Below are positions 5,538-53,827 of a DNA stretch of 64,000 nt, piece after piece (within the stretch, counting starts at the first letter, position 1; each line of letters starts with the position of its first letter). Location of the stretch: assembly GCF_963675395.1 (NCBI RefSeq), contig NZ_OY776222.1, positions 1,426,001-1,490,000 of the forward strand, in the 5' to 3' direction. The position numbers and the translations under genes are program-made. The notes under the pieces were generated by a model. That model was not told where the DNA came from. It saw only the letters and a program-made list of their open reading frames with translations, and did no database searches. The DNA is from an uncultured Vibrio sp. Its GTDB lineage: Bacteria; Pseudomonadota; Gammaproteobacteria; Enterobacterales; Vibrionaceae.

Positions 5538-7178
5538 CTAATCAATTTTAGGAGGTGTAGTGAAAGTATGGTGCGGAGCGGGACTTGGCACTGTCCATTC
5601 CAACCCTTCTGCTCGCTCCCAAGGTTTCGCCGTTGCTTTCTCACCGCCACGAATACACTTGATGACCACCCATAAGAAAATCAGCTGAGAAAGACCGAAG
5701 GCAAAACCACCAATAGAGACGATTTGGTTAACATCAGCAAACTGAATGGAGTAATCAGGGATTCGTCGTGGCATGCCCGCTAGTCCCAGAAAGTGCATGG
5801 GGAAGAACAACACGTTGACGGAAATTAGCGAGCACCAAAAATGCCACAGACTCAACTTGTGGTCATACATGTTGCCTGTCCATTTCGGAAGCCAATAATA
5901 AGCCGCTGCCATAATGGAGAACACCGCCCCAGACACCAGTACATAGTGGAAGTGAGCAACCACAAAATAGGTATCGTGATATTGAAAATCAGCTGGAACG
6001 ATAGCGAGCATTAACCCTGAGAATCCACCAATAGTGAATAGTACGATAAACGCAATCGCAAATAGCATTGGCGTTTCGAACGTGAGAGCACCACGCCACA
6101 TGGTCGCGACCCAGTTAAACACTTTCACCCCAGTGGGTACTGCAATCAGCATGGTGCAGTACATAAAGAATATTTCGGCAAACACAGGCATACCGGTAGT
6201 AAACATATGGTGAGCCCACACTAAGAACGAAAGTAGTGCGATGCTGGAGGTTGCATACACCATAGAATGGTAGCCAAACAACTTCTTACCACTAAACGCA
6301 GGAACAATTGCCGAGATGATGCCAAAGGAAGGAAGGATCATGATGTACACTTCTGGGTGACCAAAGAACCAGAAAATGTGTTGGAACATCACCGGATCCC
6401 CACCACCAGCCGCATCAAAGAAACTGGTACCAAAATACTTATCTGTCAGTACCATGGTTACCGCACCAGCCAGTACCGGCATGACCGCTATCAGTAGAAA
6501 TGCAGTGATTAGCCAAGTCCAGACAAACATCGGCATTTTGAACCAGGTCATGCCCGGTGCACGCATATTCACGATCGTTACGATGACATTGATCGCCCCC
6601 ATGATCGAGCTAATACCCATGATATGCACAGAGAACACAAACAAAGCCGTACTGTCCGGGCCGTAGGTGGTCGACAGCGGTGCGTAGAATGTCCAGCCAA
6701 AGTTAGGCGCGCCTCCTGGCAAGAACAGAGAGCTTAATAAAATGAGAAACGCAAAAGGTAGAATCCAAAAGCTCAGGTTATTCATCCGCGGTAAAGCCAT
6801 ATCTGGCGCACCAATCATCATCGGTATCATCCAGTTAGCCAAACCAGTAAATGCAGGCATCACAGCACCAAAGACCATGACTAAACCGTGAACTGTCGTC
6901 ATCTGGTTGAAAAACTCAGGTTCGACTAATTGTAAGCCTGGTTGAAACAGCTCTGCGCGAATGACCATCGCCATCGCTCCACCAGTAAGGAACATTGTGA
7001 AGCTAAACCAGAGATATAGTGTGCCGATGTCTTTATGGTTGGTCGAATACAACCAACGAGTAAGCCCTTTGGGCGCGTGATGAGCATCGTGATCATCATC
7101 GAGGGCAATCGTTGAATTTGCCGAGGTTTGCGCTTCAATCGGCGCAGACTTTATCGCTTTTTCTGCTGGCTTACTCAT
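5538..7178 (-). CDS. ctaD: Cytochrome c oxidase subunit I (aa3 type)
   Basis: Catalytic subunit carrying heme a and the heme a3-CuB centre, which reduces oxygen and pumps protons. The 546-residue product has twelve hydrophobic segments. The CuB motif [14 protein letters not shown], the paired histidines HHMFTTGMP, the heme ligands near HFHYVL and the D-channel style [10 protein letters not shown] region are visible. The start overlaps the ctaC stop by 4 bases (ATGA), so the two are translationally coupled. Confidence 0.97.
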
Positions 7179-8338
7179 ATTTCCTCCTTAGCACTCTTTT
7201 GTGCCTTAAAGGCATTGACGTCAGATGCTTGAACGGTATCGCCCGTATCATTACCCCACGCATTTCTCTGATAGGTTATGACGGCGGCGATCTCTTTATC
7301 ACTTAGCTGGTTAGCAAAAGATTGCATCGCGGTTCCCGCGCGACCATTCACAACCACTCCAATGTGTTCAGTCACATTACCTGTAGCCACTGGGCTGCCT
7401 TTAATGGCAGGAAATGCGCCTGGAATCCCTTCACCATTAGCCTGATGGCACACTGCACAGCGTGATGTATAAATCGCTTCGCCTTCTACCATCAGCTCAT
7501 CCATGGATAAGTCTTGGGTTAATGCCTCTTGAGCAGCGGCTTTCTGAAGGGCTATTTCTTCTTTTTTGCCAGATAGCCATTGGTCAAACTCTTGCTCTTC
7601 CATCGCATGCACCACAATCGGCATAAAACCGTGTGCGCGTCCGCAGAGCTCGGCGCATTGGCCCCGATACACACCTGGCTCGTCAATTCGTGTCCACGCT
7701 TCATTGATGAATCCAGGTACGGTGTCTTTCTTCACTGCAAAATCAGGTACCCACCACGAGTGAATCACATCGTCTGACGTGAGAAGGAAACGGACTTTTC
7801 GATTAACCGGAAGTACCAGCGGTTGATCCACTTCAAGTAAGTAATGAGCGCCTTTGGCTTCAACACCGTCGATCTGCTTCTGACTGGTTGCGAGAAGACT
7901 AAAAAACTCGACGTCTTGACCAAAATAGTTGTAATGCCACTTCCACTGCGAGCCAGTGATTTTGATGGTGAGATCAGATTGGCTGGTATCTTCCATTGCA
8001 ACTAAGGTTTTGGTTGCGGGAATCGCCATTGCCACAAGAATGATGATAGGGATAACCGTCCAAATAATTTCCACTTTGGTGCTCTCATGGAAATGAGCGG
8101 CAACGGCTCCTTTTGACTTGCGATGACGAATGATGGAATAGAACATGACACCAAAGACCACCAGGGCAATCGCACAGCAAATATAGAAGATCAGCATATG
8201 CAATTCATATACTTGCTCACTGATCGCTGTGACCCCTTTGGTCATGTTGTAATCATTGTCTTTTGACCATCCATAGGAGGAAAATATGATTAAAATCACA
8301 TTCAGTGTTAAGGCTAGAGTAGTCGCTAATCTTTTCAA
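7175..8338 (-). CDS. ctaC: Cytochrome c oxidase subunit II with C-terminal cytochrome c domain
   Basis: Electron-entry subunit of the oxidase. The 387-residue product has an N-terminal signal, two membrane segments (about residues 45-65 and 90-110) and a periplasmic cupredoxin domain with the CuA ligands ([12 protein letters not shown]). It ends in a fused cytochrome c domain with the heme motif CAVCH. The fusion marks a caa3-like form that can take electrons directly from soluble or bound c-type cytochromes. It is the first gene of the minus-strand locus, and its promoter should lie in 8339-8650. Confidence 0.96.
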
Positions 8339-42278: not shown

Positions 42279-45200
42279 TTATTCCGTTTGAACGTATTCC
42301 GTCGCCTCGCTGGATGTCTTAACAGATTCTACGCTCTCAACTTTGACCGCGGCAACCTTAAATTCAGGGATCTTGGCGTGAGGATCCGTTGCCGTGGTGG
42401 TTAACCGGTTGACTGGCGACTCCACGAAATGAAAAGGAATAAATACCACCCCTTTTTGCATTCTTTTCGTCACAAAGGCATCGATCTCAATATGGCCACG
42501 ACGCGTCGATATTTTCAGACGTTTACCGTTGCTGATCCCTAAAGCTTCAGCATCTTCGACGCTGATCATGGCTCTCGGTCCTGCCAGATTATCTAGTCCT
42601 TTTGTCTTACGCGTCATGGTCCCTGTGTGGAATTGCTCCAATACGCGTCCTGTTGTCAGTACCAACGGATATTCAGTATCCGGTAGCTCAGCAGCGTAAC
42701 GGAATGGGATGCCCACCATTTGCCCTTTACCACGCGTGAACTGGGTTTGGTGCATGATGCGCGTACCGTTCGGATTATTCTTGTTGCTCGGCCATTGAAC
42801 TCCATTGGGTGTGATCGCATCCCAACGTAGGCCCGCATACTGTGGCGTGACACGAGCAATTTCACTGGTGATCTCTGACACGCTGCGATAATGCCAGTCA
42901 CTGCCCATGGCATTCGCCAACTCTTGAATGATCCACCAGTCCTCTTTCGCTTCCCCCGGCGCTGTGACGACTGCATTCACCCGCTGAACACGACGCTCGG
43001 TATTAGTGAAGTGACCCGATTTTTCTGCAAACGAACAAGAAGGCAAAACCACATCGGCGTACTGAGCTGTTTCCGTCAAGAAGATATCCTGCACGACCAG
43101 GAAATCTAAAGCCTCCAAGCCTTCAATCACATGCGCTTGGTTTGGATCACTCAACACTGGGTTCTCCCCCATGATGTACATCCCCCGGACGTCCCGTTTG
43201 CATGCTGCATCGATGATTTCTGTCAGCGTTAATCCTTGCTCAACAGACAAATTCGGTGCATTCCACTCTATGGTAAACTTCTGCCGAACCATTGGGTTAT
43301 ACACTTTTTGATAACCCGGATAGCAGTTCGGCAACGCCCCCATGTCACAAGCCCCTTGCACGTTTGATTGGCCGCGTAGTGGATTGATACCACCGCCTTC
43401 GATACCAATGTTTCCGCACAGCAGTTGCAGGTTTGCTATAGAACGGACGTTGTCATGCCCGGTGGTATGCTGCGTAATTCCCATCGAATAGTACACAGCG
43501 GTACGCTTGGCTGTCCCGATCATACGCGCCATAGCGAAAATATCATCGGCTTTCACGCCCGTTACCAGCTCAACTTTGTCTAAGTTGTAAGCCGGTGACA
43601 TCACCTCTTGAAGCAAGGTATCAAAACCATCAACTCGCTCTTCAATGTACTCTTGATCAAACCAGCTGTTCTTAATGATTTGCTGCATCACACCATTAAG
43701 CAACATGACATCCGTCCCCGGACGATGCGCCAAATAAAGCTCAGCATGCTCAACGATATCGACACGTTTTGGATCCGCGACAACCAGACGGGCACCATGA
43801 TGACGGATGGCCTGTTTGATATGAGAGGCGATGATTGGATGCGCAGAAGTGGTGTCTGAACCGATAATAAAGATTACATCCGAGTGTTTGATACTCGGGA
43901 TATCATTGGTCATTGCACCACTGCCTAATGAGGCTTCTAACCCGGTGACGCTCGATGCATGACATAGCCTTGCACAGTGATCTACGTTATTGGTACCGAG
44001 TTCACGACGGATGAACTTCTGGAACGCGTAGTTATCTTCGTTGGTCGTTTTCGCTGAAGAAAAACCCGCCAGCGCATTGCTGCCAAAGTCTTGCTTAATC
44101 GTAGAAAGCTTGGATGCCACTAATTGAATCGCCTCCTCCCAACTTGCTGGTTGTAGCCAACCATCTTTGCGGATAAGTGGTGTCGTTAATCGTTCTTCGC
44201 TCGCAATAAAATCAAAACCAAAACGCCCTTTTACGCACAACATGCCTTGGTTCACTGGTGAGTCTGCACCTTTCACGTAGCGAATTTTATTCTCCGCTTC
44301 GTCAACAAACATGGTTAACTTACAACCGACCCCGCAGTAGGTACAGATAGTATCAACAGCCTTCAAATCCTCAGTTCGACCTTGCGATCGGTCACGGCTA
44401 TCGACCATGGCTCCCGTTGGACATGCTTGCACACAGGCACCACACTGCACACATTTAGAGTCACTCATCAACGTTAAACCGCCGTGCTTGCCTCCTTTGT
44501 TGTCTGAACGGAATCGAGGCCGATCATCTGGTCGCAGCGCCGGACGACCATGAGCATCACTCACAAAACCTAGTACCCCATGGACGGCTTGCTCTCGACA
44601 TGCCTGAATACACTGACCACAACTGATACAACGGTTAGCATCGAATTCAATGAACTCTGAACTGCGGTCAACTTCATATTTATGGCGAAGATCTTTTGCT
44701 CGTAGGTCGAGCCAACTTTGATGGTCCACCAAATCTGTTGCCTTGGCTTGTAACGTATCCTCAAATTTCTGCTCAGCTTGATATTCTGTAGAGTAATCAC
44801 GCAAAGCACAGTCAGTATTGGCCTGACAGCCACATTCAAGGCAACGCGCCGCTTCTTTCATTGCCTCTTCATTATCAAATCCGAGCTCGACTTCGGCAAA
44901 ACTCTGCTCACGCTGCTCGGGGGTTAACTCCGGCATGATCGTACGAGCAACTTTTTGGATGTTTTCAAAGTGAAGCGGATCAACTTGCGACAATTTTTGC
45001 TCTTTACGTGAGTTAAAAGCCGGCGTTGGCATATCCTCCATGTCTCCGTTTAGGAAAAGATCAATGGCTTTTGCGGCAACTCGCCCATCTCCAACCGCTT
45101 CTACCGCTGTCGCAGGGCCGCGGCGGAAATCACCAATGCTGAAAATATTCTCCGTCCCGGTATGCATGGTTTGTGCATCGGATTCTGAGGTGTTCCAACG

Positions 45201-46547
45201 AGTAAGCGGTATCTCTAACGAGTCATTTTCTAAGAAACTCAAATCAGGCTTCTGTGATACCGCGGCAATCACCGTATCGAATGCTTCAGTAAAGAGCTCC
45301 CCTGTCGGTTTCGGGCTGCGACGACCTGATGAATCCGGAGCACCAAGTGCCATCCGCTCTAACCGAACGGCATAAACGCGACCGTTGTCATCGGCTAAGT
45401 TTTCTGCAGGGTTGGTCAGAAAGTGGAACTTAACGCCTTCATGCTCAGCTTCAACAATTTCATAGTCTTCTGCTGGCATTTCATCTCGAGTTCGACGGTA
45501 AATCAACGTCGTATCAGCACCAGCTCGTCTTGCGGTTCGGGCACAATCGATCGCGGTGTTACCACCACCAATAACGGCTACTTTTTTGCCAGTGACATAG
45601 TTTCTTTCGGTTACGTAGTCTTTTAGATAATCGACGCCCAGATAACAGCCTTTTAAATCGCTACCCGGATAAGCCATCTCAACCGCTTTAGAAGCTCCGA
45701 CAGCCAGACAAACCGCGTCGTAATCTTTACTTAATTGTAAAAGCGTGAAATCCACGCCAAGCTTTTTATTGGTTTTGATATTCATGCCATTACGACACAT
45801 CAATTCGATTTCTTTATCCAGAATGTCTTTCGGTAAACGATATTCCGGTATGCCGTAGCGTAACCACCCACCTGCTTTCGGCATCGACTCAAAAACGGTA
45901 ACGTCATAACCCTCGTTAGAAAGGTAATAACCCGTAGTCAGCCCACCCGGACCACTTCCCACAACCGCTATTGTTAGGCTTTTAGTTGGCTTTTTGTTTG
46001 GCACATAGGCGTCATAAGAAGCTAAATCGGTATCGGCGGCGTGACGCTTAAGTTGGCGAATGGCAATAGGTTCATCGACTAACGAACGACGACATTCACT
46101 TTCACAAAATGCGGGGCACACACGCCCGATCGATAGCGGCATGGGCAGCGTTTTTTTGATCACTTCAATTGCTTTTTGGTGATCGTTTTGCGAAATATGG
46201 TAAAGGTAAGACTGAATATCGACCCCAGCGGGACAGGCCGTTTTACATGGAGCTTCGCAGTCAGCGTAATGATCGGTCATGATTCGGTTAAGTGCTTTTC
46301 TTCGATGCTCGCTGAGTGGCTCTGACTGTGTAACTACGTTAAGCCCGCGATAGACTTCCAGCTCACAAGCTCGCTTTGTCCCACCCCTCTCGATCTCAAC
46401 GACACACAAGTCACATGGAATTTTTTCATTACTCTTATTCATTCCGCAAAGTGACGGTATTTCCACCCCGCACACTTTTGCCGCTTCAAGAAGAGTAAGC
46501 CCTTCCTCTACGATTCGATACTTCCCGTCAATGACAATTTCAATCAT
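42279..46547 (-). CDS. Fused GltD-like flavoprotein / molybdopterin formate dehydrogenase
   Basis: A 1422-residue multi-domain oxidoreductase. In order: a NuoG-like 2Fe-2S domain (C34, C45, C48, C61); a linker with an N-terminal GltD-type Cys set (CEAPCKTACPAG); a FAD domain (VVGSGPGGLTTG, near 195); and an NAD(P) domain (VIGGGNTAID, near 335). Two 4Fe-4S clusters follow (CISCGQCIQAC and CVQCGACVQACP, near 645-715), then the molybdopterin catalytic subunit with CTYCGVGC and Cys862 in RLCHASS. Cys862 sits where FdhF carries selenocysteine, so it is the likely Mo ligand. The likely reaction is formate oxidation coupled to NAD(P), or the reverse; nucleotide choice is unproven. The flavocytochrome gene lies 227 bases upstream on the same strand. 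Confidence 0.88.
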   Translation of the reverse strand: MIEIVIDGKYRIVEEGLTLLEAAKVCGVEIPSLCGMNKSNEKIPCDLCVVEIERGGTKRACELEVYRGLNVVTQSEPLSEHRRKALNRIMTDHYADCEAPCKTACPAGVDIQSYLYHISQNDHQKAIEVIKKTLPMPLSIGRVCPAFCESECRRSLVDEPIAIRQLKRHAADTDLASYDAYVPNKKPTKSLTIAVVGSGPGGLTTGYYLSNEGYDVTVFESMPKAGGWLRYGIPEYRLPKDILDKEIELMCRNGMNIKTNKKLGVDFTLLQLSKDYDAVCLAVGASKAVEMAYPGSDLKGCYLGVDYLKDYVTERNYVTGKKVAVIGGGNTAIDCARTARRAGADTTLIYRRTRDEMPAEDYEIVEAEHEGVKFHFLTNPAENLADDNGRVYAVRLERMALGAPDSSGRRSPKPTGELFTEAFDTVIAAVSQKPDLSFLENDSLEIPLTRWNTSESDAQTMHTGTENIFSIGDFRRGPATAVEAVGDGRVAAKAIDLFLNGDMEDMPTPAFNSRKEQKLSQVDPLHFENIQKVARTIMPELTPEQREQSFAEVELGFDNEEAMKEAARCLECGCQANTDCALRDYSTEYQAEQKFEDTLQAKATDLVDHQSWLDLRAKDLRHKYEVDRSSEFIEFDANRCISCGQCIQACREQAVHGVLGFVSDAHGRPALRPDDRPRFRSDNKGGKHGGLTLMSDSKCVQCGACVQACPTGAMVDSRDRSQGRTEDLKAVDTICTYCGVGCKLTMFVDEAENKIRYVKGADSPVNQGMLCVKGRFGFDFIASEERLTTPLIRKDGWLQPASWEEAIQLVASKLSTIKQDFGSNALAGFSSAKTTNEDNYAFQKFIRRELGTNNVDHCARLCHASSVTGLEASLGSGAMTNDIPSIKHSDVIFIIGSDTTSAHPIIASHIKQAIRHHGARLVVADPKRVDIVEHAELYLAHRPGTDVMLLNGVMQQIIKNSWFDQEYIEERVDGFDTLLQEVMSPAYNLDKVELVTGVKADDIFAMARMIGTAKRTAVYYSMGITQHTTGHDNVRSIANLQLLCGNIGIEGGGINPLRGQSNVQGACDMGALPNCYPGYQKVYNPMVRQKFTIEWNAPNLSVEQGLTLTEIIDAACKRDVRGMYIMGENPVLSDPNQAHVIEGLEALDFLVVQDIFLTETAQYADVVLPSCSFAEKSGHFTNTERRVQRVNAVVTAPGEAKEDWWIIQELANAMGSDWHYRSVSEITSEIARVTPQYAGLRWDAITPNGVQWPSNKNNPNGTRIMHQTQFTRGKGQMVGIPFRYAAELPDTEYPLVLTTGRVLEQFHTGTMTRKTKGLDNLAGPRAMISVEDAEALGISNGKRLKISTRRGHIEIDAFVTKRMQKGVVFIPFHFVESPVNRLTTTATDPHAKIPEFKVAAVKVESVESVKTSSEATEYVQTE

Positions 46548-46774: not shown

Positions 46775-48109
46775 TCACCTCATCACAAACAGCTCTTCAT
46801 GATAGTGATGCTCGATATCGAATCGATACTCAGCCAATTGTTGTTTTAATGCGGTAGAAAACGCTTCAGGTCCACAGAAATAAAGCTCATAGTCTGACAA
46901 ATTCCCACACTGTTTAATGATGCGTTGCGCGTTAAGTCTTGGCGATATCTGAGTATCAATAACACTTAATTCAACCTCAGCGTGATGGGCATAACGCCAT
47001 AACTCATCCACTAAATGGCTATCCAAACCGCGTACACAATAGAATAGGTATACTGGCTGATGCGATTTCCGCTCTTTTAATGAAGCAAGTATCGCAAAGA
47101 AAACCGCAATACCAACACCACCAGCAATCCAGATTTGAGGTTTGGTAAGGTCAAACTCTAAACGACCATAAGGTCCTTCCAGAGTTACCTCATCATCTAC
47201 TTTTACTTGGTCGAATAAGCCCGTTGTAAAATCTCCAAGCTCTTTGATCAAAAATCGTAGCTCAGGTTCACCATTAGCCGAGGCAATCGTAAACGGATGC
47301 GGATCTTCATTACCAAATCGTACATAAGCGAATTGTCCTGCTTTATGCCCCTGCCAAGAGTCCGTTGGGGTAACCACCAATTCCATAACACGAGCCTGAG
47401 GGAAAAAGCGCGTCGATTTCACTTTCATACTATGGCGGTTCATTCGACCAACCAAGCCCGATAAGCTATAGATAGCCGCAGCACTTCCAATCAAGGCAAA
47501 TGCGATAGACACATAATGAATCGGATCACCCCAATAAGCTCGCTTGATCAACAAAACGGAATGTATGGCAATCATCAGATAGACAGCGGCCATCAATCGA
47601 TGTGACACTTTGAACGGCTTGTATTTCACCACGCCCCAAAGTGAAATAACGAATAAAACTAATAGAAGATAAAATCCCCACTCTCCGAGACTAAGTCCCA
47701 CATCGCGCAGACCCACTATCGATTGTTCCAATCCTGTTAAGTTATGTCCGGCAGGCCCTTCCCCGCTATGTTTAAGGGGCTCTGCTAGGATTCCCGACTC
47801 GACTAACCATTTAGGCACTTGATACCAAAGCCAATGCACTATGGCTAAACTCACACCAGAAATACCCAACCACTTATGAACTCGATAGGCTTTGTCCATA
47901 CCATTCGCCCAGCGCTCTACAACCGGCAAGCGCAACGCTAACACCATGGCAATGGACATTAAGCCGAGTGCTATCACACCAGAATATTGAATCAACGCTG
48001 AGCGCCAATAAAAAAATTGTGTCGATGACAGCAGTTGTGGTTCGCTCATAAACCACAGAACAGATACGACTGCAATCACGACACATATAGAATTCCGTAC
48101 TGTTTTCAT
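46775..48109 (-). CDS. Ferric-reductase-like flavocytochrome
   Basis: A 444-residue membrane oxidoreductase. The N-terminal half (about 1-215) has six hydrophobic segments of the ferric reductase/NOX heme b domain with histidines HKWLGISG, AIVHWLWY, VSHRLMAA and IAIHSVLL. The C-terminal half is a ferredoxin-reductase module with the FAD motif HPFTIAS, the NAD(P) motif IAGGVGIAVF and the terminal CGPEAF. It would pass electrons from NAD(P)H across the membrane. It precedes the formate dehydrogenase gene, and co-transcription is possible but the gap is 227 bases. Confidence 0.88.
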   Translation of the reverse strand: MKTVRNSICVVIAVVSVLWFMSEPQLLSSTQFFYWRSALIQYSGVIALGLMSIAMVLALRLPVVERWANGMDKAYRVHKWLGISGVSLAIVHWLWYQVPKWLVESGILAEPLKHSGEGPAGHNLTGLEQSIVGLRDVGLSLGEWGFYLLLVLFVISLWGVVKYKPFKVSHRLMAAVYLMIAIHSVLLIKRAYWGDPIHYVSIAFALIGSAAAIYSLSGLVGRMNRHSMKVKSTRFFPQARVMELVVTPTDSWQGHKAGQFAYVRFGNEDPHPFTIASANGEPELRFLIKELGDFTTGLFDQVKVDDEVTLEGPYGRLEFDLTKPQIWIAGGVGIAVFFAILASLKERKSHQPVYLFYCVRGLDSHLVDELWRYAHHAEVELSVIDTQISPRLNAQRIIKQCGNLSDYELYFCGPEAFSTALKQQLAEYRFDIEHHYHEELFVMR

Positions 48110-48320
48110 CTTCGCTACTCCACCACTGGTGACAACTTTAGTTTAGTGCAACCTACGTAAAGCAACGTCAATAACGGTAAAGCTTAGTAAAACGCTTTAT
48201 TTGAGCAGAATTCTACAGAAAACCAACAGGGATTTAACAGTCCGTAGTGCATTCCATCGCTATAGTCTGAGTTGATTTCACCTCAATGCGAGCCAGAAAA
48301 ATAAATAAAGATAATCACCC

Positions 48321-49172
48321 ATGAGAAAGTTACTTTTTTTGATTGCGCTAATGGTCGTCTCACCTTTAAGTCACGCCTCTAAATTACATGAAGATATTTC
48401 TCTTCTTGAGCAACAGATCACTGGTCGCATAGGGATCGCCGTCTGGGATACTCAGACGGATAAACATTGGGCCTATCGTGGTGACGAAAGATTCCCTCTG
48501 GTAGGGACCGTTAAGACGTTAGCATGTGCAACCATGCTGAATGAGATGGACACTGGTATTCTCAGAAAAAACGCAACAGCAGCAGTAGAAAAACACAATA
48601 TGGTGATGTGGTCCCCTATTTTGGACAAGCTTTCCGGACAAAATGTACGTATCGAGCATGCATGCGAAGCCGCCATGTTGATGAACGATAACACGGCAAC
48701 AAACCTGGTTTTAAATGAAATAGGTGGTCCCAAATCGGTCACACTTTTCCTGCGTACCATAGGAGACAAAGCCACAAGACTCGACAGAATTGCGCCAGGC
48801 GTCAACGAAGCCATGCCAGGTGACAAGCATGATACAACAACACCCAACGCTATTGTAAACACTCTGGAAACGCTCATCGATGGCGATGCGCTTTCTTATG
48901 AATCTCGAACTCAATTAAAGATTTGGATGCAAGACAGTAAAGTGTCTGATTCACTCATGCGTTCAGTGTTACCTTCAGGCTGGTCTATCGCAGACCGCTC
49001 AGGTTCTGGTGGAAACGGCTCTCTTGGTTTTAATGCCGTCATCTGGAAAGAAAACCACAAGCCTGTTTATATTAGTATCTATGTTGCAGAAACCGAACTG
49101 TCTCTGCAGGCAAGAGAACAACTCATCGCACACATTAGTCAACTTATTTTGTATAAGTACCAGAACTTCTAA
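48321..49172 (+). CDS. Class A beta-lactamase homologue lacking catalytic residues
   Basis: A 283-residue secreted protein (signal peptide ending SHA near residue 20) that aligns along its whole length with CARB/PSE-type class A penicillinases. Numbering is constant: residue n here equals Ambler n+8. Lys65 (Ambler K73), Asn124 (N132), Asn162 (N170) and the RSG triad 226-228 (CARB form of KTG) are kept. The nucleophile Ser70 is Gly62, Ser130 is Asn122 and Glu166 is Ala158. No frameshift or stop is present. By known mechanism it cannot hydrolyse beta-lactams, so it is either a pseudoenzyme with another role or a decaying gene. Confidence 0.88.
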   Translation: MRKLLFLIALMVVSPLSHASKLHEDISLLEQQITGRIGIAVWDTQTDKHWAYRGDERFPLVGTVKTLACATMLNEMDTGILRKNATAAVEKHNMVMWSPILDKLSGQNVRIEHACEAAMLMNDNTATNLVLNEIGGPKSVTLFLRTIGDKATRLDRIAPGVNEAMPGDKHDTTTPNAIVNTLETLIDGDALSYESRTQLKIWMQDSKVSDSLMRSVLPSGWSIADRSGSGGNGSLGFNAVIWKENHKPVYISIYVAETELSLQAREQLIAHISQLILYKYQNF

Positions 49173-49196: not shown

Positions 49197-49230
49197 AAAT
49201 AAAAAAGGTAGCGACCTAAACGCTACCTTT
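49197..49230 (-). terminator. Terminator of the DUF2158-like small gene (also faces the beta-lactamase homologue)
   Basis: AAAGGTAGCG (49204-49213) pairs with CGCTACCTTT (49221-49230) around 7 bases; on the minus strand TTTTTT follows. Confidence 0.88.
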
Positions 49231-49581: not shown

Positions 49582-50112
49582 ATGACGAAAGGCCTTAAAA
49601 TGCGTGCGTTAGAACGATCAGACCTTCGTTTTATCCACGAACTCAATAACAACCGCAATATCATGGCCTACTGGTTTGAAGAGCCTTACGAATCTTATGA
49701 TGAACTGGAGGAACTTTACCGTAAGCACATTCATGATGATGCAGAAAGGCGTTTTGTTGTAGAAGATGTTGACGGTATTGTTATCGGCTTAGTTGAACTG
49801 ATTGAAATCAACTACATTCATCGAAGTGCAGAGTTTCAGATCATCATTGCTCCTGAACACCAAGGCCGGGGCTACGCGATGGAGATGATCCACCGCGCTT
49901 TAGATTATTCTTTTTCTATTCTCAATCTACGTAAAATTTATCTGCTGGTTGCAGTAGAAAATGAAATCGCCATCCACTTATATAAAAAGTGTGGCTTTAT
50001 CGAAGAGGGCCACTTAGTTGAGGAGTACTTTATTAATGGTGGTTATCGAGACGTTATACGCATGTACATTTTGAAGCATCAATATCAGAAGCAGATAGAA
50101 GAAAAGCAATAA
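49582..50112 (+). CDS. speG: Spermidine N1-acetyltransferase
   Basis: Acetylates spermidine and spermine with acetyl-CoA to control polyamine levels. The 176-residue GNAT protein is close to V. cholerae SpeG as remembered, including RALERSDLRFIHELNNNRNIM, EEPYESYDELEELY, RRFVVED, LVELIEINYIHRSAEFQIIIAPEHQG and KCGFIEEGHLVEEYFINGGY. The acetyl-CoA loop is QGRGYA. CCGGAGAAGCATC precedes the ATG. It converges on the FadL-type gene and shares a terminator with it. Confidence 0.95.
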   Translation: MTKGLKMRALERSDLRFIHELNNNRNIMAYWFEEPYESYDELEELYRKHIHDDAERRFVVEDVDGIVIGLVELIEINYIHRSAEFQIIIAPEHQGRGYAMEMIHRALDYSFSILNLRKIYLLVAVENEIAIHLYKKCGFIEEGHLVEEYFINGGYRDVIRMYILKHQYQKQIEEKQ

Positions 50113-52750: not shown

Positions 52751-53827
52751 TCAAGTACGAAGTGCGACACCTCTGAACATAAAAACAGTAAGGTGCGATA
52801 ATCATGAACTTTGCTCCCGCCAAGAAGTAAAAAACATGAAATACACGCACCTCACTGAGAACGAAAGGTATATGATTTCTGCTCTCAGAAAGCAAGGAAT
52901 TAGTACCGTTAAAATAGCTAAACAACTGGGGCGTCACAAAGCCACTATCTATCGAGAAGTTGAACGTAATTGCCGTTACAACAAGTTCTTCGATAGGTAC
53001 TCTTATCAACCAGAACGGGCACAGCAAATGGCGCGCAACCGGCTGAGCCGCTCACGGCGAAATAAGCGCTACAGCAAAATCGACTTCAAGTTGCCTGAAG
53101 CCTTGCTACGACTGGATTGGAGCCCTGACCAAATCGTCGGATACTTAAGGATGAGAGGCTATCCGACAATGAGTCATGAGCTCATTTATCAGCACATCTG
53201 GAACGACAAAACTCTCGGTGGAACACTGTGGAAACACCTACGCCAGTCCACTAAGAAAAGGCGTAAAAGGTATAACTCAAAAGACAGCCGAGGACGGCTG
53301 GCGGCAAAGCGTCATATCACCGAAAGACCTGCAAAAGCTGAGCACAGAAAAGAGCCTGGTCATTGGGAAATTGATACCGTCGTTGGCCGCGGAACCAAGC
53401 ACTGTATCGTGACTTTAGTCGACAGAATGACTGGCTACACTTTTATTGGGCAAATGGACGATAGAACAAGCGGGTCGCTCAACGTAAGAATGAGCAAAAT
53501 CATGACCCGCTCTGACTTACCTTTTAAGACGATAACTGCGGATAACGGCACTGAATTTCATGGTTATGCACAACTAGAAAAACATCATAACTGTTTGTTT
53601 TACTTTGCAAATCCATACCATTCATGGGAACGAGGCACTAATGAAAACACCAATGGCTTGATACGACAATACTTACCAAAACGAACTTCCATGTCACACG
53701 TGACACAGAAGCTCTGCAATGAAATTGCGGACAAACTAAACACGCGCCCACGCAAAAGACTTGGGTATAGGACACCAACGGAGTATATTCATGCGCATCT
53801 GTAGAAAGTGTCGCACTTCAAACTTGA
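52751..53827. mobile_element. IS30 family insertion sequence, about 1077 bp
   Basis: One transposase gene flanked by imperfect inverted repeats. The left end reads TCAAGTACGAAGTGCGACAC and the right end, read inward, TCAAGTTTGAAGTGCGACAC. The exact outer ends and any 2-3-bp target duplication could not be fixed by eye. Confidence 0.85.
52836..53804 (+). CDS. IS30 family transposase
   Basis: A 322-residue DDE transposase. The N-terminal HTH reads TENERYMISALRKQGISTVKIAKQLGRHKATIYREVERN. The catalytic core has HWEIDTVVG (first Asp), TADNGTEF (second Asp) and SWERGTNENTNGLIRQYLP (Glu), the hallmark order of IS30. The frame is intact, so the element may be active. Confidence 0.96.
   Translation: MKYTHLTENERYMISALRKQGISTVKIAKQLGRHKATIYREVERNCRYNKFFDRYSYQPERAQQMARNRLSRSRRNKRYSKIDFKLPEALLRLDWSPDQIVGYLRMRGYPTMSHELIYQHIWNDKTLGGTLWKHLRQSTKKRRKRYNSKDSRGRLAAKRHITERPAKAEHRKEPGHWEIDTVVGRGTKHCIVTLVDRMTGYTFIGQMDDRTSGSLNVRMSKIMTRSDLPFKTITADNGTEFHGYAQLEKHHNCLFYFANPYHSWERGTNENTNGLIRQYLPKRTSMSHVTQKLCNEIADKLNTRPRKRLGYRTPTEYIHAHL

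What the first reader, a model, noticed from the sequence alone, without database searches (positions are those of the whole stretch)
48321..49172. Secreted class A beta-lactamase homologue with all three key catalytic residues replaced
With a constant 8-residue offset to Ambler numbering, Ser70 is Gly, Ser130 is Asn and Glu166 is Ala, while Lys73, Asn132, Asn170, the RSG triad, the signal peptide and the full length are kept. Loss of the nucleophile abolishes acylation by known chemistry. A random relic would be expected to carry frameshifts or stops; none is present. It may bind penicillins or peptidoglycan fragments without cutting, or act as a sensor.
Basis: partly seen in the sequence, partly recalled or inferred. 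Interest (0 to 1): 0.8.

Follow-up and report, generated by a model that had tools for sequence, protein, structure and literature searches.

The report
Conserved dead penicillinase in Vibrio
A group of related Vibrio species carries, in place of its ancestral penicillin-destroying enzyme, a version whose cutting residues are gone but whose protein is still kept intact by natural selection, so it probably does another job in the cell envelope.

Summary
ORF 48321-49172 (+) encodes an intact 283-aa CARB-type class A beta-lactamase homologue with Gly70, Asn130 and Ala166. It is the orthologue of the intrinsic Vibrio blaCARB, at the same site with the same promoter elements. It is not a relic: omega is 0.08 in the dead crown and omega=1 is rejected, 2dlnL 586; two intact neighbour genes have 0.087 and 0.035. 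Of 70 conserved positions 59 are kept by all six; 47, 70, 130 and 244 changed in all six. The predicted fold matches solved Vibrio CARB at 0.6 A. A second, distant lineage (2 genomes) also lost Ser70, Ser130 and Glu166 and is constrained. Best reading: a maintained periplasmic pseudo-beta-lactamase, inert on beta-lactams, with a non-covalent binding role; the role is inferred. Five of six pass NCBI's "carbenicillin-hydrolyzing" cut-off.

The parts
48321..49172 (+). CDS of the pseudo-beta-lactamase (283 aa), orthologue of intrinsic Vibrio blaCARB
48321..48377 (+). probable signal peptide (about 19 aa), similar in all six dead relatives
   Evidence: sequence; solved CARB chain aligns from residue 19; cleavage site inferred, no signal-peptide predictor was run
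48504..48506 (+). codon 70: Gly (GGG) in place of the nucleophile Ser
   Evidence: Gly in 6 of 6 dead relatives with differing third bases (GGG, GGA, GGC)
48513..48515 (+). codon 73: Lys kept (Asn in relative L004)
48684..48686 (+). codon 130: Asn (AAC) in place of the proton-shuttle Ser
48792..48794 (+). codon 166: Ala (GCG) in place of Glu, in the window's species only
49023..49025 (+). codon 244 (ABL): Leu (CTT) in place of Arg
48215..48240 (+). promoter box: three ACA(G) at 11-bp spacing, of the kind OmpR/PhoB-family regulators bind (assignment inferred)
   Evidence: exact in 18 of 20 orthologues (misses L002 and L014), 0 of 14 other loci; 1 in window, 0.13 expected; pattern chosen after seeing the alignment
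48261..48266 (+). TATAGT, -10-like hexamer; starts 46 bp after the box start in the 18 orthologues with the exact box
   Evidence: present 58 to 63 bp before the start codon in 20 of 20 orthologues; the generic sigma-70 scan did not list it
46775..48109 (-). divergent neighbour: ferric-reductase-like membrane oxidoreductase, part of the conserved gene neighbourhood
49582..50112 (+). GNAT acetyltransferase, conserved downstream neighbour
49204..49230 (.). palindrome downstream of the gene, terminator-like
   Evidence: listed on the minus strand; 5 such sites found in the stretch, 1.2 expected

Best explanation
The intrinsic chromosomal CARB beta-lactamase of an ancestor of this Vibrio group lost its nucleophile (Ser70 to Gly), proton shuttle (Ser130 to Asn) and carboxylate anchor (Arg244 to Leu) while the gene stayed in place and kept its promoter elements. 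The product is a folded, exported periplasmic pseudoenzyme that cannot acylate or hydrolyse beta-lactams by the class A mechanism. It is kept by purifying selection for a non-catalytic job, most likely non-covalent binding of a protein partner or a cell-wall fragment through the retained scaffold and remodelled pocket, made under the old two-component (VbrK/VbrR-type) control. Shown here by computation: the lost residues, the clade, in-place orthology, conserved promoter elements, predicted fold, purifying selection, and absence of a second full-length class A gene in the five dead-species genomes searched. Inferred: lack of activity, export, regulator identity, and the binding role.
For: Gly70, Asn130 and Leu244 in 6 of 6 relatives, with codon 70 varying GGG/GGA/GGC. 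Same gene neighbourhood as orthologues with intact motifs. Codon ML: omega 0.047 on branches with intact motifs, 0.080 in the dead crown; dead=1 rejected 2dlnL 586; window branch 0.067, =1 rejected 2dlnL 101. Five close species alone (pairwise dS 0.34-0.95): 0.085, =1 rejected 2dlnL 362. Neighbour ferric reductase in four of the same species: 0.087. 59 of 70 conserved positions kept in all six; 47, 70, 130 and 244 changed in all six. If the codon were neutral, the simulated chance that all six keep Gly70, Asn130 or Leu244 is 0.006, 0.0015 and 0.012. Promoter box exact in 5 of 6, -10 hexamer in 6 of 6. Model pLDDT 92.3, 0.6 A to 6izc. The 16 best-scoring genomes by rpoB, own genome included, all hold the orthologue (with 8 and 14). 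A second nucleophile-less lineage is also constrained: omega 0.12, =1 rejected 2dlnL 148. VbrK/VbrR is said to regulate blaCARB (passages, PMC11921324; PMC7666205).
Against: No activity, binding, expression or knock-out data. Omega is higher than in orthologues with intact motifs (0.080 vs 0.047, p = 3e-4), so constraint is somewhat relaxed; the neighbouring GNAT gene is held tighter (0.035) though it also rises in these species (0.014 elsewhere, p = 0.012), the ferric reductase does not rise (0.087 vs 0.092). The active-site lists behind the enrichment tests (p = 0.011 and 0.0011; 0.02) were drawn up by me from recalled structural knowledge after seeing the alignment. The link of the box to VbrR is inferred; the passages read name no VbrR site at a bla promoter.
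Confidence: 0.66

Rival explanations
1. A beta-lactam sink or sensor: it still binds penicillins without cutting and so titrates or reports the drug.
For: Engineered S70G class A enzymes hold intact benzylpenicillin (CTX-M-9 S70G, passages of PMC11843585). Trp105, Asn132, Arg234, Gly236 and Ser/Thr235 are kept in all six. The promoter elements of the blaCARB gene are kept.
Against: Arg244 is Leu, Ser130 is Asn and position 276 is Glu in all six, which removes known contacts around the beta-lactam carboxylate (recalled). A sink that does not turn over is a poor defence (inference).
Confidence: 0.15
2. A changed enzyme that hydrolyses another bond without a serine nucleophile, for example with water activated by Lys73 or Glu166.
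For: Lys73, Glu166 and Asn170 are each kept in 5 of 6 relatives, more than a neutral codon would give (P 0.028, 0.022, 0.018).
Against: Each of these residues is lost in one species: Ala166 in the window, Asn73 in L004, His170 in L005. No single serine-free class A mechanism therefore fits all six, and the window lacks Glu166.
Confidence: 0.08
3. A pseudogene in slow decay: resistance is no longer needed and the reading frame survives by chance.
For: Catalytic residues are lost in several steps; omega is raised against orthologues with intact motifs; a further relative, L018, lost Lys73 and Arg234.
Against: omega=1 rejected by 2dlnL 586 and 362. About 101 new stops would be expected over the crown without constraint (extrapolated over long branches); none is seen in the six. 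The 16 best-scoring genomes by rpoB all keep the gene (with 8 and 14).
Confidence: 0.05
4. Low dN/dS only reflects selection against misfolding of an exported, expressed protein that has no function.
For: Exported proteins that misfold are costly (general knowledge); the scaffold is what is conserved.
Against: Loss of the gene or promoter would be an easier escape, yet the gene sits at its site in 6 of 6 and the promoter box is exact in 5 of 6. The new residues Gly70, Asn130 and Leu244 themselves are held.
Confidence: 0.06

Closest known systems
Intrinsic chromosomal CARB beta-lactamase of Vibrio parahaemolyticus (6izc, 6izd; the CARB-17 group by PMC4729947)
   Same: Same family, 74% identity and 0.6 A in the fold match; full-length match. 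The window's gene sits at the same site and has the same promoter elements as the orthologues with intact motifs read here; no genome named V. parahaemolyticus was read
   Different: Lacks Ser70, Ser130, Glu166 and Arg244
VHW-1 beta-lactamase (Vibrio campbellii record, 70% identity)
   Same: Same family, at an identity typical of the orthologous group
   Different: Annotated as a beta-lactamase; its own residues were not read here
PSE-4 / CARB-type carbenicillinases (8j6y, 1g68)
   Same: Fold, and Arg234 of the RSG motif
   Different: PSE-4 keeps Ser70, Ser130, Glu166 and Arg244 (alignment)
Engineered S70G traps (TEM-1 S70G 1zg6; CTX-M-9 S70G)
   Same: Gly at 70 removes the nucleophile (1zg6 listed; CTX-M-9 S70G in passages of PMC11843585)
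   Different: Laboratory mutants of active enzymes; here natural, fixed over six species, with Ser130 and Arg244 also gone
Second nucleophile-less lineage L065/L068 (found here)
   Same: Gly70 and loss of Ser130 with Lys73 and Asn132 kept; purifying selection
   Different: About 40-44% identical to the main orthologue group, other gene neighbourhood, Gly130, Omega-loop deletion, Arg235, Arg244 kept

Membership tests
Class A beta-lactamase (by homology and fold) | Match to curated class A models over full length; class A fold | tested here: met
   NF033103 266.6 bits, cut-off 200; PF13354; model TM-score 0.92 to 6izc
Class A beta-lactamase (as an enzyme) | Nucleophile Ser70 | tested here: not met
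   Gly in 6 of 6 of the clade
Class A beta-lactamase (as an enzyme) | SDN motif 130-132 | tested here: not met
   NDN in 6 of 6
Class A beta-lactamase (as an enzyme) | Glu166 general base | tested here: not met
   Ala in the window; Glu kept in the other five
Class A beta-lactamase (as an enzyme) | Lys73; K/R-T/S-G motif 234-236 | tested here: met
   Lys73 and RSG in the window
Class A beta-lactamase (as an enzyme) | Hydrolysis of a beta-lactam | not testable with these tools
   No assay
CARB family as named by NCBI (NF000188) | Score over 600 bits | tested here: not met
   514.3 bits; orthologue with intact motifs L006 627.4, but L009, also intact, only 571.4
CARB/PSE/RTG carbenicillin-hydrolyzing (NF000481) | Score over 430 bits | tested here: met
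   441.7 bits, although the catalytic residues are absent; 5 of 6 dead proteins and L017 pass, L005 does not (404.5)
Pseudogene | Stops, frameshifts or omega near 1 | tested here: not met
   No lesions in the six; omega 0.080
Pseudoenzyme | Enzyme fold kept, catalytic residues lost, lineage maintained by selection | tested here: met
   (fold is a prediction)
Pseudoenzyme | Non-catalytic function demonstrated | not testable with these tools
   Needs bench work

The most novel reading that the evidence does not exclude
A new kind of periplasmic receptor or regulator built on the class A beta-lactamase fold, which arose at least twice in Vibrio by removing both active-site serines while keeping Lys73 (in all but one relative) and Asn132. 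It is held by selection as a partner- or cell-wall-fragment-binding protein; in the window's lineage it is under the stress control of the old resistance gene.
Probability: 0.35. Interest if true: 0.78.

Novelty: new variant of a known kind. Interest (0 to 1): 0.62.

Why it matters
It is a natural case in which a resistance enzyme's orthologue appears to be kept for something other than resistance, in species where no second full-length class A gene was found (five genomes). It makes testable whether beta-lactamases have a native non-hydrolytic role in the envelope. Practically, curated models would label five of the six proteins "carbenicillin-hydrolyzing", so genome-based resistance calls in this Vibrio group could be wrong.

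Tried and rejected
Relic: rejected by dN/dS. Extra paralogue beside an active copy: rejected for the five clade genomes searched whole, which have one such gene each at the ancestral site. Another serine beta-lactamase in the own genome: PF00144 gave this gene and a weak 384-aa frame; PF13354 this gene and frames of 384, 394 and 492 aa; PF00905 four frames of 604 aa or more; these look like penicillin-binding proteins by length (inference). Metallo-beta-lactamases were not searched.

How many times Gly70 arose is not settled. The first protein tree, built with the catalytic columns, needs only one change for Gly70, with L065/L068 joined to L017 on weak support (84/48). Without the catalytic columns L065/L068 fall beside L006/L007 (88/24) and L017 at the base of that group; the AU test does not reject L017 plus the six as one clade (p 0.124). 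The 19-taxon codon tree puts L017 outside the dead clade; the 25-taxon codon tree makes it sister to the clade and puts L065/L068 well outside; neither codon tree carries support values. By ferric reductase L017's species is next to the dead species (no support values); by rpoB it groups with four of them at 99.5 SH-aLRT / 62 bootstrap (G080 gave no rpoB match). I count at least two origins because L065/L068 lie at another site and in a distant species pair, but this is a judgement.

L018's omega (0.013) rests on a long branch and is not used. The stem omega differs between data sets (0.079, 0.13). Paper searches for an inactive class A homologue found none (0 papers; 2, judged unrelated from the listing); the library lacks most subscription papers. 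Resistance data warn that blaCARB orthologues with intact motifs do not always give resistance: 33.9 to 78.4% of isolates in three species (passages, PMC11921324).

Genomes G196-G226 were searched with the window protein only at E 1e-100 and with L068 at 1e-40. Five genomes could not be scored in the rpoB ranking.

Full report
What is there. The ORF 48321-49172 (+) is intact, 283 aa, with a signal-peptide-like start. It scores 514 bits against NCBI's CARB model (cut-off 600), 441.7 against the CARB/PSE/RTG "carbenicillin-hydrolyzing" model (cut-off 430) and 266.6 against the class A model (cut-off 200). Aligned to solved V. parahaemolyticus CARB (6izc) and to its orthologues, it has Gly70, Asn130 and Ala166, with Lys73, Asn132, Asn170 and RSG 234-236 kept. 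In standard numbering (recalled) residue 235 is position 244, and it is Leu where 42 of 42 relatives with intact motifs have Arg. The own genome holds one copy. Below, "active" means that the catalytic residues are present, not that activity was measured.

How widespread. I read the catalytic residues of 56 homologues, counting one from the named genome Vibrio sp. J1-1 and two from one genome (G043), after dropping three of another family: 9 of 56 lack Ser70. Six form one clade: the window, L002, L003, L004, L005 and J1-1 (L031), the others at 94 to 75% identity to the window. All six have Gly70, Asn130 and Leu244. Ala166 is in the window only, Asn73 in L004 only, His170 in L005 only. The clade stands at 100/100 support when the catalytic columns are left out of the tree. 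L017 has Gly70 but keeps Ser130, Glu166 and Arg244; several but not all trees place it or its species next to the clade (see Tried and rejected), which would make Ser70-to-Gly the first step. L065 and L068 are a more distant pair with Gly70, Gly130, no Glu166 and Arg235, in another gene neighbourhood; in 227 genomes only these two match L068 above 44% identity.

Where it sits. I compared 14 orthologous neighbourhoods (window, L042-L053, L031). Thirteen have the divergent ferric-reductase-like gene beside it (L046 lacks it; in L044 it is split in two frames); thirteen have efflux-type genes upstream (recognised by eye and by similarity to each other, no family search; absent from the window); ten show the GNAT gene downstream within the stretch read. 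All six dead copies are at this site. In the window a formate-dehydrogenase-like gene stands where the efflux genes are elsewhere. So this is the ancestral gene altered in place. The upstream region keeps ACA-N8-ACA-N8-ACAG at -104 to -109 and a TATAGT 46 bp after the box start: exact box in 18 of 20 orthologues (5 of 6 dead; L002 and L014 miss), 0 of 14 other loci; TATAGT in 20 of 20. The pattern occurs once in the window against 0.13 expected, but it was chosen after seeing the alignment. Such 11-bp repeats are typical of OmpR/PhoB-type regulators (recalled), and VbrK/VbrR is said to control blaCARB (passages, PMC11921324; PMC7666205).

Selection. I fitted codon models with my own program, whose one-ratio likelihood (-8324.37) agrees with IQ-TREE's (-8324.42). 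Omega is 0.047 on active branches, 0.080 in the dead crown, 0.079 on the stem and 0.067 on the window's branch. Omega=1 is rejected for the crown (2dlnL 586) and for the window's branch (101). Dead equal to active is also rejected (p 3e-4), so constraint is mildly relaxed. Using only the five close species, whose pairwise dS is 0.34 to 0.95, omega is 0.085 and 1 is rejected (2dlnL 362). As controls, the neighbouring ferric reductase has omega 0.087 in four of these species and 0.092 elsewhere; GNAT 0.035 in four and 0.014 elsewhere. So the dead protein is held about as tightly as one intact neighbour and less tightly than the other. The L065/L068 pair has omega 0.12, and 1 is rejected (2dlnL 148).

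What was kept and lost. Of 70 positions invariant in 12 active orthologues and at least 90% conserved in 42 relatives, all six dead proteins keep 59; those changed in all six are 47, 70, 130 and 244. Active-site positions are over-represented among changed ones (3 of 11 vs 1 of 59, p 0.011; any change 6 of 11 vs 5 of 59, p 0.0011; dead-specific changes 5 of 20 vs 18 of 244, p 0.02); the active-site lists are mine, drawn up afterwards. With that codon neutral, simulation gives 0.006, 0.0015 and 0.012 for all six keeping Gly70, Asn130 and Leu244. Cys77, Cys123, Asn132 and Arg234 are kept in all six, and so is Trp105. Predicted structure: pLDDT 92.3, pTM 0.89; best solved match 6izc, rmsd 0.6 A, TM-score 0.92.

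Other activity in the species. PF13354 over 12 genomes, among them five of the six dead species, shows no second full-length class A gene in any of those five; further matches there lie in frames of 384 to 782 aa. In the own genome PF00144 and PF00905 give no short class C or D candidate. By rpoB score the top 16 genomes (95% or more, own genome included) all hold the orthologue, active or dead; five genomes were not scored and G080, itself a dead species, gave no rpoB match. The 19th, G127 (94%), has no match to the window protein at E 1e-10.

How it most likely works. Acylation needs Ser70; without it, and with Ser130 and Arg244 also gone, class A hydrolysis should not occur (established mechanism). 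Because the remaining residues Lys73, Glu166 and Asn170 are each lost in one species, a shared serine-free reaction is unlikely. The protein is nevertheless strongly held by selection. A non-catalytic role is therefore the best reading. Binding of a protein partner or cell-wall fragment is my choice over penicillin binding because of Arg244; this last step is inference.

Novelty. Pseudoenzymes are a known kind. A natural, multi-species, selectively maintained class A beta-lactamase without its nucleophile was not found in four paper searches of the held library. PMC4729947 (passages) lists CARB-like genes in several Vibrio species, V. natriegens included, without comment on catalysis in the passages I saw. 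The size of contig G153:C2 reminded me of V. natriegens chromosome 2 (recalled), but the species of the window, of L002, L003 and of L005 were not established here; L004 is a metagenome-derived Vibrionaceae genome.

Noticed in passing
L065 (G135), L068 (G043); also L115, L116: A second, distant nucleophile-less class A lineage with Gly70, Gly130, shortened Omega loop and Arg235; G043 also carries a copy with all catalytic residues (L067).
   Followed up: partly
L018 (G120): Orthologue that keeps Ser70 but has Thr73, Ser170 and His234: probably another inactive form.
   Followed up: partly
48157-48191: Four GTnAA units at exact 10-bp spacing (48157, 48167, 48177, 48187) between the divergent genes, partly conserved in relatives; perhaps a regulator site of the ferric-reductase gene.
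   Followed up: no
48473-48877 (-): 134-aa antisense ORF inside the gene, open in several relatives too; probably a by-product of codon usage.
   Followed up: no
42279-46547 (-): Formate-dehydrogenase-like gene (molybdopterin domains; name inferred) stands where 13 of 13 compared relatives have the efflux-type genes, which have no match in the window: a rearrangement next to the gene in this species.
   Followed up: partly
52836-53804 (+): IS30-type transposase (HTH_38 and rve domains; IS30 name recalled).
   Followed up: no
L044 (G080), about 6419-7760: In this metagenome-derived genome the ferric-reductase frame is split in two ORFs, by error or mutation; left as is and not used in the control.
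   Followed up: no
L046 (G192): This orthologous neighbourhood lacks the ferric-reductase gene but keeps the efflux-type genes, the beta-lactamase gene and GNAT.
   Followed up: no
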